Shown here one piece after another: positions 14,468 to 47,382 of a DNA stretch of 52,921 bases; positions within the stretch are counted from its first letter, which is position 1; every line of letters begins with the position of its first letter. Under the pieces are notes generated by a model. The model was given only the letters and a program-made list of their open reading frames with translations. It did not search any database and had not been told where the DNA came from. The translations under genes and the position numbers were made by a program. Source of the DNA: Candidatus Melainabacteria bacterium RIFCSPHIGHO2_02_FULL_34_12 (GTDB lineage: Bacteria; Cyanobacteriota; Vampirovibrionia; 2-02-FULL-35-15); contig MFRM01000026.1 in the NCBI GenBank assembly GCA_001784555.1, positions 1-52,921 of the forward strand. Reading direction: 5' to 3'.

Positions 14468-15688
14468 ATGCTACACAAAGACAAAAAATTAAGTGTTTTG
14501 ATGGTAAATTACGAATTCCCTCCTATAGGAGGCGGAGGCGGGACTACTACCAGATTCCTTGCAAAACACCTTGTAAAGCTGGGAGTTGATGTATCGGTAT
14601 TAACTTCTAAACCTGTTGACGAGGATTCTTTCGATCATCCGGATAGCTTTAAATTATATTATGTAGGTCCACTGAAAAAGAAATTAACTACAACTCACAT
14701 ACCTGAACTCGCAAGATTTATTTTTACTGCTATTTATTACAGCAATAATATTATAAAAACTATAAAACCTGATTTAATACATTGTTTTTTTGCCATACCT
14801 TCAGGGTGTTTCGGGCTTTATGCAAAAAAAAGATTTGACATTCCATATATAACATCAGCACTGGGTGCTGATGTTCCGGGATTTGATATAGGTGACTGGA
14901 GGCTAAATATTTATCATTCACTTATGAAACCTATAACAAAATCAGTATGGAATAATTCATCTTCTATAGTTGCTAATAGTCTGTCGCTAAAAGAACTCTG
15001 TGAAAAGTTTTCAAATAAACATGAAATAAAAGTAATTACAAATGGCGTAGATACTGATGTTTTTTATCCTGCAAATAAGAAATTCAGCTCTGACAGTAAA
15101 GATGTACATCTTCTTTATATCAGCAGACTTACCTTTCAAAAAGGCATTGAAACTTTAATTAAGGCCTGCGGAATACTTAAAGCAAAAGGAGTTAATAACT
15201 ATAAACTAACCGTTGTAGGAGAAGGACATCTCAAAGATGCAATGTTTTTACTCATAGACAAACTTAATATAAAAGATAAGGTGACTTTTTTAGGCTGGAA
15301 AAAGCTTGAAGAATTACCGGATATTTACAGAAGTGCAGATATTTTTATCCTCCCTTCAGTTATGGAAGGAATGGCTAGCGTTGTTCTGCAGGCAATGGCA
15401 TGCGGACTGCCTATAATAGCTTCAAAGGTTGAAGGTTTTCAGGAAGTTCTGGAAGATAACGTAAACGGATTAAGTGCTGAGTATAATAATCCTCAGGAAT
15501 TCGCAGATGCAATAGAAAAGTTACTTAAATCAAAGGAACTGCGGGAAGCAATGGCAAGAAATAGTGCTAAAAAAGCACAAGAATTTTCATGGGAAACCAT
15601 TGCAAAAAAATATTTGGAACTATATGAGAAGTCTGTGACAATCTTACCGCGTCATTGCGAGGAACAACGTGACAAAGCAATCTACTAA
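14468..15688 (+). CDS. GT4 family glycosyltransferase
   Basis: A 406-aa GT-B fold glycosyltransferase. The N-terminal domain starts SVLMVNYEFPPIGGGGG, a loop typical of GT4 enzymes; the C-terminal domain has LLYISRLTFQKGI and EGMASVVLQAMACGLPII, the nucleotide-diphospho-sugar site with its E-x7-E-like spacing. It is cytoplasmic and likely adds a hexose to a lipid-linked glycan. A TATAAT hexamer at 14452-14457 lies 10 bases before the ATG and there is no Shine-Dalgarno, so the transcript may be leaderless. The last 13 or so residues (PRHCEEQRDKAIY) and the stop codon are encoded by a palindromic repeat that replaced or extended the original C-terminus. Confidence 0.92.
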   Translation: MLHKDKKLSVLMVNYEFPPIGGGGGTTTRFLAKHLVKLGVDVSVLTSKPVDEDSFDHPDSFKLYYVGPLKKKLTTTHIPELARFIFTAIYYSNNIIKTIKPDLIHCFFAIPSGCFGLYAKKRFDIPYITSALGADVPGFDIGDWRLNIYHSLMKPITKSVWNNSSSIVANSLSLKELCEKFSNKHEIKVITNGVDTDVFYPANKKFSSDSKDVHLLYISRLTFQKGIETLIKACGILKAKGVNNYKLTVVGEGHLKDAMFLLIDKLNIKDKVTFLGWKKLEELPDIYRSADIFILPSVMEGMASVVLQAMACGLPIIASKVEGFQEVLEDNVNGLSAEYNNPQEFADAIEKLLKSKELREAMARNSAKKAQEFSWETIAKKYLELYEKSVTILPRHCEEQRDKAIY

Positions 15689-15730
15689 CCGTCATTAGAT
15701 TGCCACGTCGCTGCGCTCCTCGCAATGACG
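15650..15730. repeat. Palindromic repeat at the GT4 3' end (CATTGCGAGGA family)
   Basis: The outer stem pairs CGTCATTGCGAGGA (15650-15663) with TCCTCGCAATGACG (15717-15730), a perfect 14-base inverted repeat. An inner stem pairs GCAATCTA (15677-15684) with TAGATTGC (15696-15703). It is GC-richer than its surroundings and resembles the widespread 'GTCATTGCGAG...GCAATC' intergenic repeats. A second copy lies at 36728-36852. The left arm is translated as the C-terminus of the GT4 protein. As RNA the hairpin could also act as a 3'-end stabiliser between the convergent GT4 and methyltransferase genes. Confidence 0.9.
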
Positions 15731-30739: not shown

Positions 30740-30770
30740 CTATACGCTCTATGCTATCCGCTATACGCTA
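30740..30770. repeat. Short direct repeat upstream of recF
   Basis: CTATACGCT occurs at 30740-30748 and again at 30761-30769 with CTATGCTATC between. The same GATACGCTAT/GGATAGCG wording flanks the in-frame repeats in the PNP and alkyltransferase-like genes, so this may be a decayed copy of that family. It lies 11 bases before the recF start. Confidence 0.35.
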
Positions 30771-36727: not shown

Positions 36728-36852
36728 GTCATTGCGAGGAGGAACATAGTGACGACGAAGCAATCCCGGACTAACTTGCGTAAATCGCTTGGGATTGCCA
36801 CGCCTCACGGAGTTTACCGCGAGCGAAGCGTGGCGGTTCGGCTCGCAATTAC
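36728..36852. repeat. Palindromic repeat (CATTGCGAGGA family), second copy
   Basis: The left arm GTCATTGCGAGGA starts at 36728 and the right arm CTCGCAATTAC ends at 36852. Inner arms are GCAATCCC (36760-36767) and GGGATTGC (36791-36798). The same arm sequences occur at 15650-15730. It is intergenic, between the exported coiled-coil gene and tRNA-Val, and longer than the first copy because of an extra GC-rich segment containing GCGAGCGAAGCG. Frames crossing it are not genes. Confidence 0.85.
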
Positions 36853-43845: not shown

Positions 43846-44241
43846 ATGAAAACCTATGAAAAAATCTACAAGCTTGTAAAAAAAATACCAAAAGGTAAAG
43901 TTGCTACCTATGGTCAGATTGGACAAATGCTGGATTTAAATCCACGAGTGGTCGGATGGGCACTTAACAGGATAGCGAAAGGACGTATCGGCGAGCCGGC
44001 GAAACGGCGAAAGAATAACCGGGAGAAAAATCGCCGGTTCGCCCCACCTCCCCATCGCCGTATCGACAGTTCTATACCCTGGCAGCGTGTAATTAATTCA
44101 AAAGGCAGCATAAGTACAGATCGGCTCATGAATATTCCACTGGGACTACAAAAAACAATTCTTGAAAAAGAAGGAATAATATTTGATAAGCAAAATAAAG
44201 TAAATTTAAAAAGGTACAGATGGACAAAATTTAAAACTTAA
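43846..44241 (+). CDS. Alkyltransferase-like (ATL) DNA-binding protein with repeat insertion
   Basis: A 131-aa MGMT C-terminal-domain homologue. The winged-helix part KIPKGKVATYGQIGQML and the Arg-finger region PRVVGWALNR are intact. The alkyl-acceptor PCHR motif is replaced by PWQRV (78-82), the hallmark of ATL proteins, which bind O6-alkylguanine and recruit nucleotide excision repair. Between NRIAKG (residue 46) and SSIPW (about 75) lie about 29 extra residues rich in Arg, Lys, Pro, absent from family members. They are encoded by a GC-rich palindromic repeat inserted in frame. Normal ATLs are about 100-110 aa. Confidence 0.85.
   Translation: MKTYEKIYKLVKKIPKGKVATYGQIGQMLDLNPRVVGWALNRIAKGRIGEPAKRRKNNREKNRRFAPPPHRRIDSSIPWQRVINSKGSISTDRLMNIPLGLQKTILEKEGIIFDKQNKVNLKRYRWTKFKT
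43985..44069. repeat. GC-rich palindromic repeat inserted in frame in the ATL gene
   Basis: GGCGAGCCGGCG (43990-44001) pairs with CGCCGGTTCGCC (44032-44043) apart from one G-T position. The 25 bases from 43985 match the reverse complement of the repeat in the PNP gene at 22 positions. The stretch is far GC-richer than the gene around it. Its length keeps the reading frame and it contributes about 29 codons with no stop. Confidence 0.8.
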
Positions 44242-46649
44242 TTTTCTGTACTCATGTATATTTCTTTTCCTTGCATGTAATTTAATAATATTCTTATTTG
44301 ATCCAGATAGGTGTTTATATACATAACTCTCTGTTCTCTGTCCAGATATTTTTCAAGACTCAGCCAGTCTTTGACTTTAAGTTGAAGTTGTATAAGTTTT
44401 TTCTCAATTTCATTTATTTTATCCGGTGTAAAGTTTCTAAAATCATTTTTTAAATCCTGCGTCAATAGGTAAACATCTTTTTGAGTCTGGCTGTCAGCAA
44501 GAACTGAAAACTTTTTAGTTACTGTAAGTTTTTCTATTACTTCTGCAAATTCCTCCATAAGCTTCTGACAGGAAAAAAGCGGTCTTTGATAAGGAATGTT
44601 TATTGTTTTTTCTCTAAAAGGCCCTTGCCTAAGGAACTCTTCTTTCATGGTATCAAGATGCTCAGAAGCAAATAAAGCTACACCTAAAACACCTGAGTTT
44701 CTGGCAGTAGTAATTCGCCCTGCAAGTTCACCTACACTTAAAACACGAATATTAAAGCCAGGAATAATTATTGCCTGATCATTTAACATCTGCCTGGTGC
44801 GTAAAAGCTTAGTTCTGACTTCCTTGTCTGTAAATGAATAATAAAACGGATAAACTACATCTACCCACCTGTTTAAAAGCCAGGTCTCCCAATCCTGCTG
44901 AATAATCTGTAACCTGAGCGAACGATCGATTGCAAAAACAGCTCCTGAGATTTTTAAATCTGGCTTGATTTCTTTTAAATACTTACTGGTGTCACGCACA
45001 AAATCATTTACAAGTTTTATTTTCCATTCTTTCCAGATTCTGTTTATTTGTCCCTCTATAGCAGGAAACATTCCGGTTTCTTCCTTAAATGCCATTCGCG
45101 TTACAAAATCAAAACCTGCCTGAGAGTCATTTTTCTGGAAAGGAAATCGAATATAATCAAACTGAAAGCCGTCTACATCATAATTTTTTACTATCTCAGC
45201 AAATAATTTTCTTAAAAACATACATGCTTTTTTGTTTGCAGGACTTACCCAGGTTTCAGGCTGTACATCAATTCTTAATTTCCCATCCTGCAATGCCAGA
45301 GCCCACGCTCTTCCTTTTCCGGAAATAATGGGACCAGGATAACCTACTGGCTGATTTATAAGAAGATTGTGACGGGAATTTCCAACAGCAAAAGTCCATA
45401 CCCATGCATGCAGTTCAATTCCATTTAAGTGAGCTTCTTCAATGGCAACTTTTAAAGGATCCCATCCTCTTATAAGAGGATTTTGCAGCAAAAGCATGGA
45501 GGGGTAAATAGGATATCCTGCATTTATTGTTTCAAAAAAAATAATATTGAATCCGGCTCTTGCAAGTTTTTTTATGTAGTTCCTAAGTTCAATTGGTGTT
45601 TTTAGACTTACTATGGTTCCACGATCCAGCCATATCGCACGAATTTCAATTTTTCTTGCCGGCATGCCGACCGAATAAGCAATTGCAAACTCACTTTTTG
45701 CCTGATTTGCACTTTGTCTTGCAATTTTATAATTTCCAAATAAATAATTTGAATTGAATTCACTTAAATAATGCACTCCATTATCAAAGTGTTTTTTTAG
45801 CTGGGATTTTGCTACAGGAAAATCCAGCTGATCTGTAACCTTTATAACTGAAAGAGCTTCTTGCTTTAATGAGTTTATTTCTTTTAAAGTTTTTTTATAT
45901 TCATCTTTTTTAATTACTTTTGCAAGCCTGAATGAAATATCATTCCAATAAAAATCCAGGGTTTTTAGTAACGTTTCTATATCTCTTACTTTATCAATGT
46001 CCTGCCCCCAACTGTACCCAAAAAACAAAACATTTTCACTACCTCCAATTGCAATTTCATTACTTTCTTTCCATCTTGCTACAACCTTCCCAAAAGGAAC
46101 AGTCAAATCAAATCTGGAATAAAAGTTTCCTACCGGAAGCTCAAAAATAATGTTGTTTACTTTATGCTTAATGTTCAGGTTTAATTGTGCAACAATATTT
46201 TCACTAGCAATAATTCCATTCTGAGATAAGAAATATTTTAAACGGTCTGAAAGAGGTCCAACCCCTGAAGAAATAATTAATTTCCCGCCTGAGCTAACAA
46301 AATCAGTTAGTAATTTTTCTTCTTCGGGGCTGATATCCAGTGCCAGAGGAAAGAAAATCACATTAACGCTAAGATCTGAAACTCTGGTATCTGTTGAGAT
46401 GTTACATAAAAACTGATAGTCAAGATATGCTTCTTCAAAAGTCTCCACAAAAGACTTCCATGCCTCAGAAAATCCAACAATATCATTTTTTTCATATGAA
46501 TCCACATTTTGATAACTGTATAAAACTCCAATCTTTTCAGCAGCAAAAGCTCTTAATAAAGTAAAATTGAAAAGTAACAGGAAGAAAGTAAGCAGAATGA
46601 ATACTTTGCTCTTAAAAAAAACCCGGCAATATCTCTTAAAAAAGTTCAA
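44238..46649 (-). CDS. GHL10-type glycoside-hydrolase-like exported protein
   Basis: An 803-aa protein. The N-terminal signal peptide (KVFILLTFFLLLFNFTLL, then RAFAAEKIG) is followed by a domain of about 230 residues resembling a class I glutamine-amidotransferase-like or DUF4350-like fold (FSSGGKLIISSGVG in SGGKLI form). A helical linker comes next, then a GHL10/DUF187 TIM barrel (about 340-650) with AIWLDRGT, HAWVWTFAVGN and the signature DGFQFDYIRFPF. A helical C-terminus follows. It probably acts in the periplasm on cell-wall or exopolysaccharide. The start is TTG at 46649 with GAGG 8 bases upstream. It overlaps the ATL gene by four bases at the 3' end and the divergent PNP gene at the 5' end. 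Confidence 0.85.
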   Translation of the reverse strand: MNFFKRYCRVFFKSKVFILLTFFLLLFNFTLLRAFAAEKIGVLYSYQNVDSYEKNDIVGFSEAWKSFVETFEEAYLDYQFLCNISTDTRVSDLSVNVIFFPLALDISPEEEKLLTDFVSSGGKLIISSGVGPLSDRLKYFLSQNGIIASENIVAQLNLNIKHKVNNIIFELPVGNFYSRFDLTVPFGKVVARWKESNEIAIGGSENVLFFGYSWGQDIDKVRDIETLLKTLDFYWNDISFRLAKVIKKDEYKKTLKEINSLKQEALSVIKVTDQLDFPVAKSQLKKHFDNGVHYLSEFNSNYLFGNYKIARQSANQAKSEFAIAYSVGMPARKIEIRAIWLDRGTIVSLKTPIELRNYIKKLARAGFNIIFFETINAGYPIYPSMLLLQNPLIRGWDPLKVAIEEAHLNGIELHAWVWTFAVGNSRHNLLINQPVGYPGPIISGKGRAWALALQDGKLRIDVQPETWVSPANKKACMFLRKLFAEIVKNYDVDGFQFDYIRFPFQKNDSQAGFDFVTRMAFKEETGMFPAIEGQINRIWKEWKIKLVNDFVRDTSKYLKEIKPDLKISGAVFAIDRSLRLQIIQQDWETWLLNRWVDVVYPFYYSFTDKEVRTKLLRTRQMLNDQAIIIPGFNIRVLSVGELAGRITTARNSGVLGVALFASEHLDTMKEEFLRQGPFREKTINIPYQRPLFSCQKLMEEFAEVIEKLTVTKKFSVLADSQTQKDVYLLTQDLKNDFRNFTPDKINEIEKKLIQLQLKVKDWLSLEKYLDREQRVMYINTYLDQIRILLNYMQGKEIYMSTEN

Positions 46650-47382
46650 TGTAATTCCTCAAATTGCCATTATAACCGGATCCGGGATTAAGTTATTTGA
46701 AAACTGTAAATTATTATTTTCAATAAAGTATAATAACCTTCCATTCTTACATAGCAAAAATCGTACCGGCGGTTCGCCGGTTCGCCGATACGCTATAAAG
46801 GGTCATGAGGGCTTACTAAAGCTCTTTAAAGTTAAAAATAAAAATGTACTTGTTTTTTCAGGCAGAAAACATTTATATCAGGGGCTTGATATTACAGATG
46901 TAAGTGCAAATATAAAACTTGCTAATGAAATTGGAGTTAAAAAAATAATAATTACAAATGCTGCAGGAGGAATAAGCAAAAAATTTAAAACAGGAGATTT
47001 AATGCTTATTGATTCATATATTGATTTAATGCAATCGACTGAAAGGGGAATTTTAAGCGGAATTACCTTGCCACCAGCAAAAATAAAAACTAATTTAACT
47101 TCTAAGTTACGTATTAAAAAAGGTACTTATGCCGGTGTTTTAGGTCCCTCATATGAAACTTATTCTGAAATTAAGTTATTACAATTACTTAAAGCTGATG
47201 CTGTCGGAATGTCAACCATTCCTGAAATAATTTGTGCAAAGAGTTTAGGGATGGATTATGCAGCTATTTCAGTAATCAGTAATTCCTGGAGCAAAAAACA
47301 CAAACCATCACATAAAGAAGTCCTTCATAATGTAAATAAGGCAAATAAAAAATTAAATGATTTAATTTTAAGATTAATTTAG
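46597..47382 (+). CDS. Purine nucleoside phosphorylase (class I) with repeat insertion
   Basis: A 261-aa trimeric-type PNP: cleaves purine nucleosides to base plus ribose 1-phosphate. Motifs are IAIITGSG (about 23-30), GHEG (69-72), SGRKHLYQG (88-96), TNAAGGISKKFKTGD and GPSYETYSEIK...ADAVGMSTIPE. The base-binding Asn is in SVISNSWS. Between LHSK and KGHEG lie about 13 residues (NRTGGSPVRRYAI) that family members lack, encoded by a GC-rich palindromic repeat placed just before the conserved GH motif. I chose ATG 46597; an ATG at 46567 is possible. The gene overlaps the divergent GHL10 gene by 53 bases at the 5' ends. Confidence 0.85.
   Translation: MNTLLLKKTRQYLLKKFNVIPQIAIITGSGIKLFENCKLLFSIKYNNLPFLHSKNRTGGSPVRRYAIKGHEGLLKLFKVKNKNVLVFSGRKHLYQGLDITDVSANIKLANEIGVKKIIITNAAGGISKKFKTGDLMLIDSYIDLMQSTERGILSGITLPPAKIKTNLTSKLRIKKGTYAGVLGPSYETYSEIKLLQLLKADAVGMSTIPEIICAKSLGMDYAAISVISNSWSKKHKPSHKEVLHNVNKANKKLNDLILRLI
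46761..46796. repeat. GC-rich palindromic repeat inserted in frame in the PNP gene
   Basis: ACCGGCG (46765-46771) and CGCCGGT (46775-46781) form a perfect stem with a 3-base loop; GGTTCGCCGATACGC follows. The reverse complement matches the repeat in the ATL gene at 22 of 25 bases, so the two copies lie in opposite orientation within two plus-strand genes. Confidence 0.8.

What the first reader, a model, noticed from the sequence alone, without database searches (positions are those of the whole stretch)
43985..46796. The same palindromic repeat lies in frame inside two unrelated enzymes, in opposite orientation
Within 3 kb, an ATL protein carries about 29 extra residues and a PNP about 13 extra residues. 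Both are encoded by GC-rich palindromic DNA sharing 22 of 25 bases when one copy is reversed. Neither creates a stop or frameshift. This resembles Rickettsia palindromic elements, which are tolerated inside open frames, but here in a presumed cyanobacterial relative. In PNP the insert directly precedes the conserved GH motif, so it must be accommodated near the active site.
Basis: seen in the sequence. Interest (0 to 1): 0.72.

Follow-up and report, generated by a model that had tools for sequence, protein, structure and literature searches.

The report
Octamer repeat arrays inside working genes
A short DNA element built from repeated 8-letter units is scattered through this bacterium's genome and often sits, still in reading frame, in the flexible loops of housekeeping enzymes; related bacteria have filled the same loops with unrelated repeats, so these loops act as recurrent landing sites for parasitic DNA.

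Summary
The ATL and PNP inserts share a 26-nt inverted match (88%), and both frames stay open. They are two of at least 59 sites in this 2.1-Mb genome, 76 with G007. The repeat is not primarily a palindrome. It is a direct array of 8-bp units, WRH-CGGCG, usually four, edged by GAACG and AAAGAAC. Only 4 of 76 copies fold clearly better than shuffles (z < -3). The window's two copies are atypical: ATL has two opposed arms, and PNP is one of only 4 of 43 scored in-gene copies (ATL not scored) on the unusual strand. Copies lie in frame in many housekeeping genes (RecJ three times, DnaX, QueA, HemC, GlpK, LdpA) or just after stop codons. Of 382 class genomes, only G000 and G007 matched a strict pattern, but similar arrays occur in Verrucomicrobiota and Chloroflexi MAGs. 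In sister genera the same protein loops hold unrelated repeats: palindromes, and heptamer arrays private to one species. Best reading: REP/RPE-like selfish DNA of a new, array-built type, tolerated in permissive loops. How it spreads is unknown. No unit order is shared beyond chance, and no target duplication was seen.

The parts
43846..44241 (+). ATL (alkyltransferase-like protein) gene, 131 aa, host of element 1
   Evidence: ORF; Pfam DNA_binding_1 E=1.4e-15; PDB relatives 2kif, 3gva; the catalytic PCHRV motif reads PWQRV
43981..44009 (+). Element 1, left arm: GGACG.tat.CGGCG.agc.CGGCG.aaa.CGGCG on an 8-bp grid
44032..44065 (-). Element 1, right arm: CGCCG.gtt.CGCCC.....CGCCG.tatCG on an 8-bp grid, inverted to the left arm, so a hairpin is possible
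46567..47382 (+). PNP (purine nucleoside phosphorylase) gene, host of element 2; start codon uncertain
   Evidence: ORF; Pfam PNP_UDP_1 E=1.8e-30; PDB 1vmk E=1e-35
46759..46793 (-). Element 2: CGGCG.gtt.CGCCG.gtt.CGCCG.ataCG in frame, coding NRTGGSPVRRYA just before KGHEG; one of 4 scored copies with CGCCG in the sense strand
   Evidence: disordered loop in model m817e713dc3ed
15651..15729 (.). GTCATTGCGAGG palindrome (CGTC-type REP), a second repeat family in the same genome

Best explanation
The inserts are copies of a short, non-autonomous dispersed repeat, about 45 bp, built as GAACG + (usually) four WRH-CGGCG octamers + AAAGAAC. They behave like REP/RPE-type selfish DNA. Shown: there are many copies; they lie in frame in variable loops of housekeeping proteins or right at stop codons; they are depleted in genes relative to chance; and the same loops in sister genera carry unrelated repeats. 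Inferred: copies enter at purine-rich (AAGAA-like) tracts by an unidentified machinery, and selection keeps only those that leave the frame open, code a hydrophilic segment (such as ERxGExAxRRxGE) in a flexible loop, or fall behind a stop codon. The peptide is probably tolerated ballast rather than a new function. The mixed triplets could come from template switching among copies at the 5-bp cores, but this is not shown.
For: 136 places vs 3 control; 95 vs 0. Fixed grid and edges in 76 elements. 43 copies in frame in ORFs with coding signal, sense strand CGGCG in 39 and CGCCG in 4 (p=3e-8). 33 of 59 G000 copies lie in genes although 86% of the stretches is coding, so they are depleted (p=1e-8). 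Intergenic copies begin at or just after the upstream stop codon, 22:2 in its sense. Orthologues show the sites are variable loops. In relatives 15 of 22 inserts at 11 such sites are inverted repeats or 6-9 bp tandem arrays, against 16% of control segments (p=6e-8); 6 of 10 at six further sites in five more genes. A private heptamer family in G009: about 100 places, 5 and 0 in two congeners.
Against: No signal of copying: 3-unit words shared between copies number 6, against 4.35 expected if units were drawn at random, unlike a normal mobile family. No target duplication. No clear mobiliser: Y1 transposase hits in G000 are weak, 21 and 20 bits. At sites shared by G000 and G007 the cores persist although the triplets differ, which could mean functional constraint. 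AAGAA is only 2.8-fold commoner in the sense strand of genes, so target preference alone may not explain 39:4 (p=0.009).
Confidence: 0.7

Rival explanations
1. The array is a functional nucleic-acid site: four CGGCG boxes at exact 8-nt spacing on the mRNA-sense strand, read by a modular RNA- or DNA-binding protein. In-gene copies are a by-product or also serve regulation.
For: Four units in 47 of 76 copies; octamer constraint WRH-CGGCG with C never at triplet position 1 and G never at position 3 before CGGCG; strand polarity also outside genes, right after stop codons; cores kept at sites shared with G007.
Against: Placement in loops of unrelated housekeeping proteins has no regulatory logic; the same loops take unrelated repeats in relatives; unit numbers range 2 to 13; no binding protein identified; nine of the ten same-family relatives searched lack the array.
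Confidence: 0.15
2. Local origin: each array grew by replication slippage from a seed in the host gene (a VNTR).
For: Identical neighbouring triplets are in excess, 21% vs 10%, so some local duplication occurs.
Against: The same GC-rich core and edges at dozens of sites in a 34% GC genome cannot arise locally each time; unit number peaks at four instead of a decaying distribution.
Confidence: 0.04
3. Ancient functional protein segments that happen to share codons.
For: At RecJ, LdpA and the AmiC tail, G000 and G007 keep the same frame.
Against: Other genera lack the segments or carry unrelated ones; the same element is read in all three frames in different genes; intergenic copies exist.
Confidence: 0.02
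4. True palindromic family (RPE or REP in the strict sense), the single arrays being half elements.
For: A few copies are two-armed (ATL, L054, L056, L036, L044), as is the array in a Verrucomicrobiota contig and the heptamer arrays of G009.
Against: Median folding z is -0.3 and only 7 of 76 are below -2; no GTAG tag seen and the CGTC tag is not consistent.
Confidence: 0.09

Closest known systems
Rickettsia palindromic elements (RPE), Ogata 2000/2002, as reviewed in PMC10969869
   Same: Dispersed, in frame inside unrelated metabolic genes, no known transposase, short coded segment tolerated
   Different: RPEs are palindromic and about 150 bp as reviewed; here direct octamer arrays of about 45 bp in another lineage, with combinatorial triplets and strong strand polarity
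GTAG- and CGTC-tagged REPs (PMC3733652)
   Same: Intergenic copies close to the 3' end of the upstream ORF, intragenic copies including DNA repair genes, different REPs at about the same site of recB in two Xanthomonas; RPE-4 and RPE-6 assigned there to CGTC-4 and CGTC-1
   Different: REPs are tagged single hairpins; this element is a tandem array, and no consistent tag or strong Y1/RAYT gene was found in G000
Cyanobacterial short tandemly repeated repetitive sequences (STRR, 7-bp units; from memory)
   Same: Degenerate short-unit arrays dispersed in the genome, sometimes inside functional RNA genes, with lineage-private sequences
   Different: Unit 8 bp with a CGGCG core and a preferred number of four; many copies inside protein genes

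Membership tests
Rickettsia palindromic element (RPE) | Dispersed multi-copy repeat | tested here: met
Rickettsia palindromic element (RPE) | Inserted in frame inside unrelated protein genes | tested here: met
Rickettsia palindromic element (RPE) | Palindromic, stable hairpin | tested here: not met
   median z -0.3, 7 of 76 below -2
Rickettsia palindromic element (RPE) | Sequence homology to RPE families | not tested
   RPE consensus sequences were not at hand
REP (GTAG or CGTC tagged) | Terminal GTAG or CGTC tag plus stem-loop | tested here: not met
   edges are GAACG and AAAGAAC; no general stem-loop
REP (GTAG or CGTC tagged) | Placement next to the 3' end of the upstream ORF | tested here: met
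   comparison
REP (GTAG or CGTC tagged) | Associated RAYT/Y1 transposase | tested here: inconclusive
   two weak hits in G000, no link to the arrays shown
STRR (short tandemly repeated repetitive) arrays | Tandem degenerate short units at many dispersed loci | tested here: met
STRR (short tandemly repeated repetitive) arrays | Heptanucleotide unit | tested here: not met
   8-bp grid; same-family relative G009 does have heptamers
MITE | Terminal inverted repeats and target-site duplication | tested here: not met
   own-flank matches 4.8 vs 4.5 for shuffled pairs; most copies have no inverted ends

The most novel reading that the evidence does not exclude
The four-octamer array is a coded nucleic-acid site: fixed spacing, a restricted triplet alphabet used combinatorially without shared orders, and mRNA-sense polarity point to a modular binding protein or an unknown templated synthesis that writes each array anew, with the same octamer words used in other phyla.
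Probability: 0.12. Interest if true: 0.88.

Novelty: new variant of a known kind. Interest (0 to 1): 0.62.

Why it matters
In-frame insertion of repeats into working genes was called unique to Rickettsia (title of a 2002 paper cited in PMC10969869), and REPs inside genes were later reported in other species (PMC3733652). Here a different, array-built element does the same in another lineage, and several sister genera have filled the same loops with unrelated repeats. That makes a testable case that proteins have recurrent landing loops through which parasitic DNA keeps supplying new coding sequence, and the loops double as a map of safe insertion points. The lack of shared unit order is a puzzle that ordinary transposition does not explain.

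Tried and rejected
Idea that an element created the PurC-PurS fusion: rejected, the fusion is in all six relatives searched. Target-site duplication: none. Hairpin as the general feature: rejected. Recent copying from a master: no shared 3-unit words beyond chance. Rfam: only a tRNA in the window, nothing at the element sites. Literature on octamer or heptamer arrays inside bacterial protein genes: nothing found in the held library.

Full report
What is there. The shared core is far above chance in the window (4 seen, 0.03 expected) and in the genome (136 vs 3 for the reversed pattern; CGCCGNNNCGCCG 95 vs 0). The window is G000:C26:1-52921 of a 2.1-Mb, 26-contig genome.

Anatomy. I fetched stretches around the hits in G000 and in the one same-family relative that also has them, G007. 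Laid on the purine strand, 76 elements share one plan: aaGAACG, then triplet-CGGCG octamers on a strict 8-bp grid, then AAAGAAC. Forty-seven of 76 have four units; the range is 2 to 13. Detection needed two exact cores, so short and decayed copies are under-counted. The core is CGGCG in 230 of 329 units and GGGCG in 34. The triplet before CGGCG is W-R-H: C never first, G never third. RTG precedes GGGCG in 18 of 34 cases and never CGGCG among its common triplets. The order of units is not shared between copies beyond chance (6 shared three-unit words, 4.35 expected), although identical neighbours are in excess (21% vs 10%). The copies are not generally palindromes: median folding z is -0.3, only 7 of 76 are below -2 and 4 below -3. 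A few, including the ATL copy, have two opposed arms; the PNP copy has one G unit and two C units.

Where they sit. In 43 cases the array lies in frame inside an ORF with coding signal (ATL, whose short ORF scored too low, is not among them), and 39 have CGGCG in the sense strand. All three reading frames are used (phases 1, 2, 0: 19, 16, 4). The hosts are housekeeping genes: RecJ with three copies, DnaX with two, phosphoglucomutase, PurC-PurS, PurL, PurQ, QueA, HemC, FolP, GlpK, aconitase, acetyl-CoA synthetase, KdsB, RsmI, PrmC, LdpA and others. Outside genes, the first CGGCG usually lies within about 12 bp of the upstream stop codon, 22:2 in the sense of both neighbours. So the polarity is not only a matter of the coded peptide. 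AAGAA, which resembles the left edge, is 2.8 times commoner in the sense strand of genes, which may explain part of it. Copies are depleted in genes (33 of 59, 86% coding), as expected if most in-gene insertions are lost. Gene calls are my own codon-usage scores, not an annotation.

What relatives show. In seven same-family relatives (six other genera) the octamer inserts are mostly absent, but the sites are variable loops. RecJ site 1 holds octamers in G000 and G007, a GTCATTCCCGG palindrome in G003, a GTCATTGCGAGG palindrome in G009, and nothing in G006. RecJ site 2 holds octamers, a GTCATTGCGAGG repeat in G001 and a GAGATCA heptamer array in G009. HemC, QueA, FolP, PNP and ATL show the same. 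PabB, LdpA and the PurC-PurS linker extend it. Of 22 longer loops at eleven sites, 15 are inverted repeats or 6-9 bp tandem arrays, against 16% of control segments from the same proteins. The GAGATCA array has about 100 places in G009 but 5 and 0 in its congeners G006 and G010, so such families turn over fast. The GTCATTGCGAGG family is in all eleven genomes. In the PNP model the insert, residues 47-57, has pLDDT below 50 (five models uneven, mean 74).

Distribution. Among 382 genomes of the class only G000 and G007 matched a strict three-unit pattern; a looser pattern on 40 relatives gave the same two as the only clear cases. Yet real arrays with the same words occur in a Verrucomicrobiota MAG (five units facing six; 75 places vs 5 control genome-wide) and in Chloroflexi MAGs (599 vs 7, and 43 vs 4). 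In 93 genomes of the Verrucomicrobiota MAG's class a four-unit pattern matched only 5, some of them plain single-unit tandem arrays. Whether this is transfer or convergence is open.

Age. At least seven sites are shared by G000 and G007 (RecJ 1 and 2, LdpA, AmiC tail, ATL, RsmI N-terminus, GH116). The frame is the same at RecJ 1, RecJ 2, LdpA and the AmiC tail, but different at GH116, and the orientation differs at ATL. Some are therefore probably old insertions and others independent ones in the same permissive loop. At the old ones the cores persist while the triplets differ, which is either constraint or replacement.

Mechanism. Best reading: selfish repeat DNA of REP/RPE behaviour, tolerated where frame and loop allow. 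The spread mechanism is not shown: no duplication of target, no convincing Y1 transposase, no copying signature. The chief rival is a functional four-box binding site on the mRNA-sense strand. Prior art: intragenic REPs, their position at 3' ends and same-site REPs in recB are known (PMC3733652), and in-frame RPEs are known (PMC10969869). New here are the octamer-array form, its lineage, and loops colonised by several unrelated families across genera.

Taxon. No name was given by the tools. The class placement is theirs; the link to non-photosynthetic cyanobacterial relatives is inference, supported only by an LdpA gene.

Noticed in passing
window 15651-15729 and 36728-36739: GTCATTGCGAGG repeats (CGTC-type REP, resembling RPE-4 from memory) also lie in this window; the family is in all 11 same-family genomes searched.
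   Followed up: partly
L062:2668-2787 (QueA), L067 (PabB, residues about 108-140): GTCATTGCGAGG-type inserts in frame inside QueA (STEGATEQSRTSLCKSIGIASVALLPRND) and, by its peptide, PabB, next to the octamer elements of the same genes.
   Followed up: partly
G009 genome-wide: About 100 places of a degenerate GAGATCA heptamer array, nearly absent in two congeners; two copies seen in frame in RecJ and FolP with opposed arms.
   Followed up: partly
L094:5116-5443: Verrucomicrobiota MAG contig: five GAACG/TRT-CGGCG octamers facing six inverted ones about 130 bp away, with G-tract edges GGGGGGAGAACG.
   Followed up: partly
L060:2232-3251: PurC-PurS fusion gene with the octamer element in its linker; the fusion exists in all six relatives searched, with other repeats in the same linker in some.
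   Followed up: yes
L038:2488-2613: Longest irregular copy: nine CGGCG units partly off the grid followed by an inverted run of TCGCCCYA octamers, between genes.
   Followed up: no
window 30740-30770: Weak 7-bp tandem array (CTATACG, 4.4 copies, 75% matches) just upstream of an ORF.
   Followed up: no
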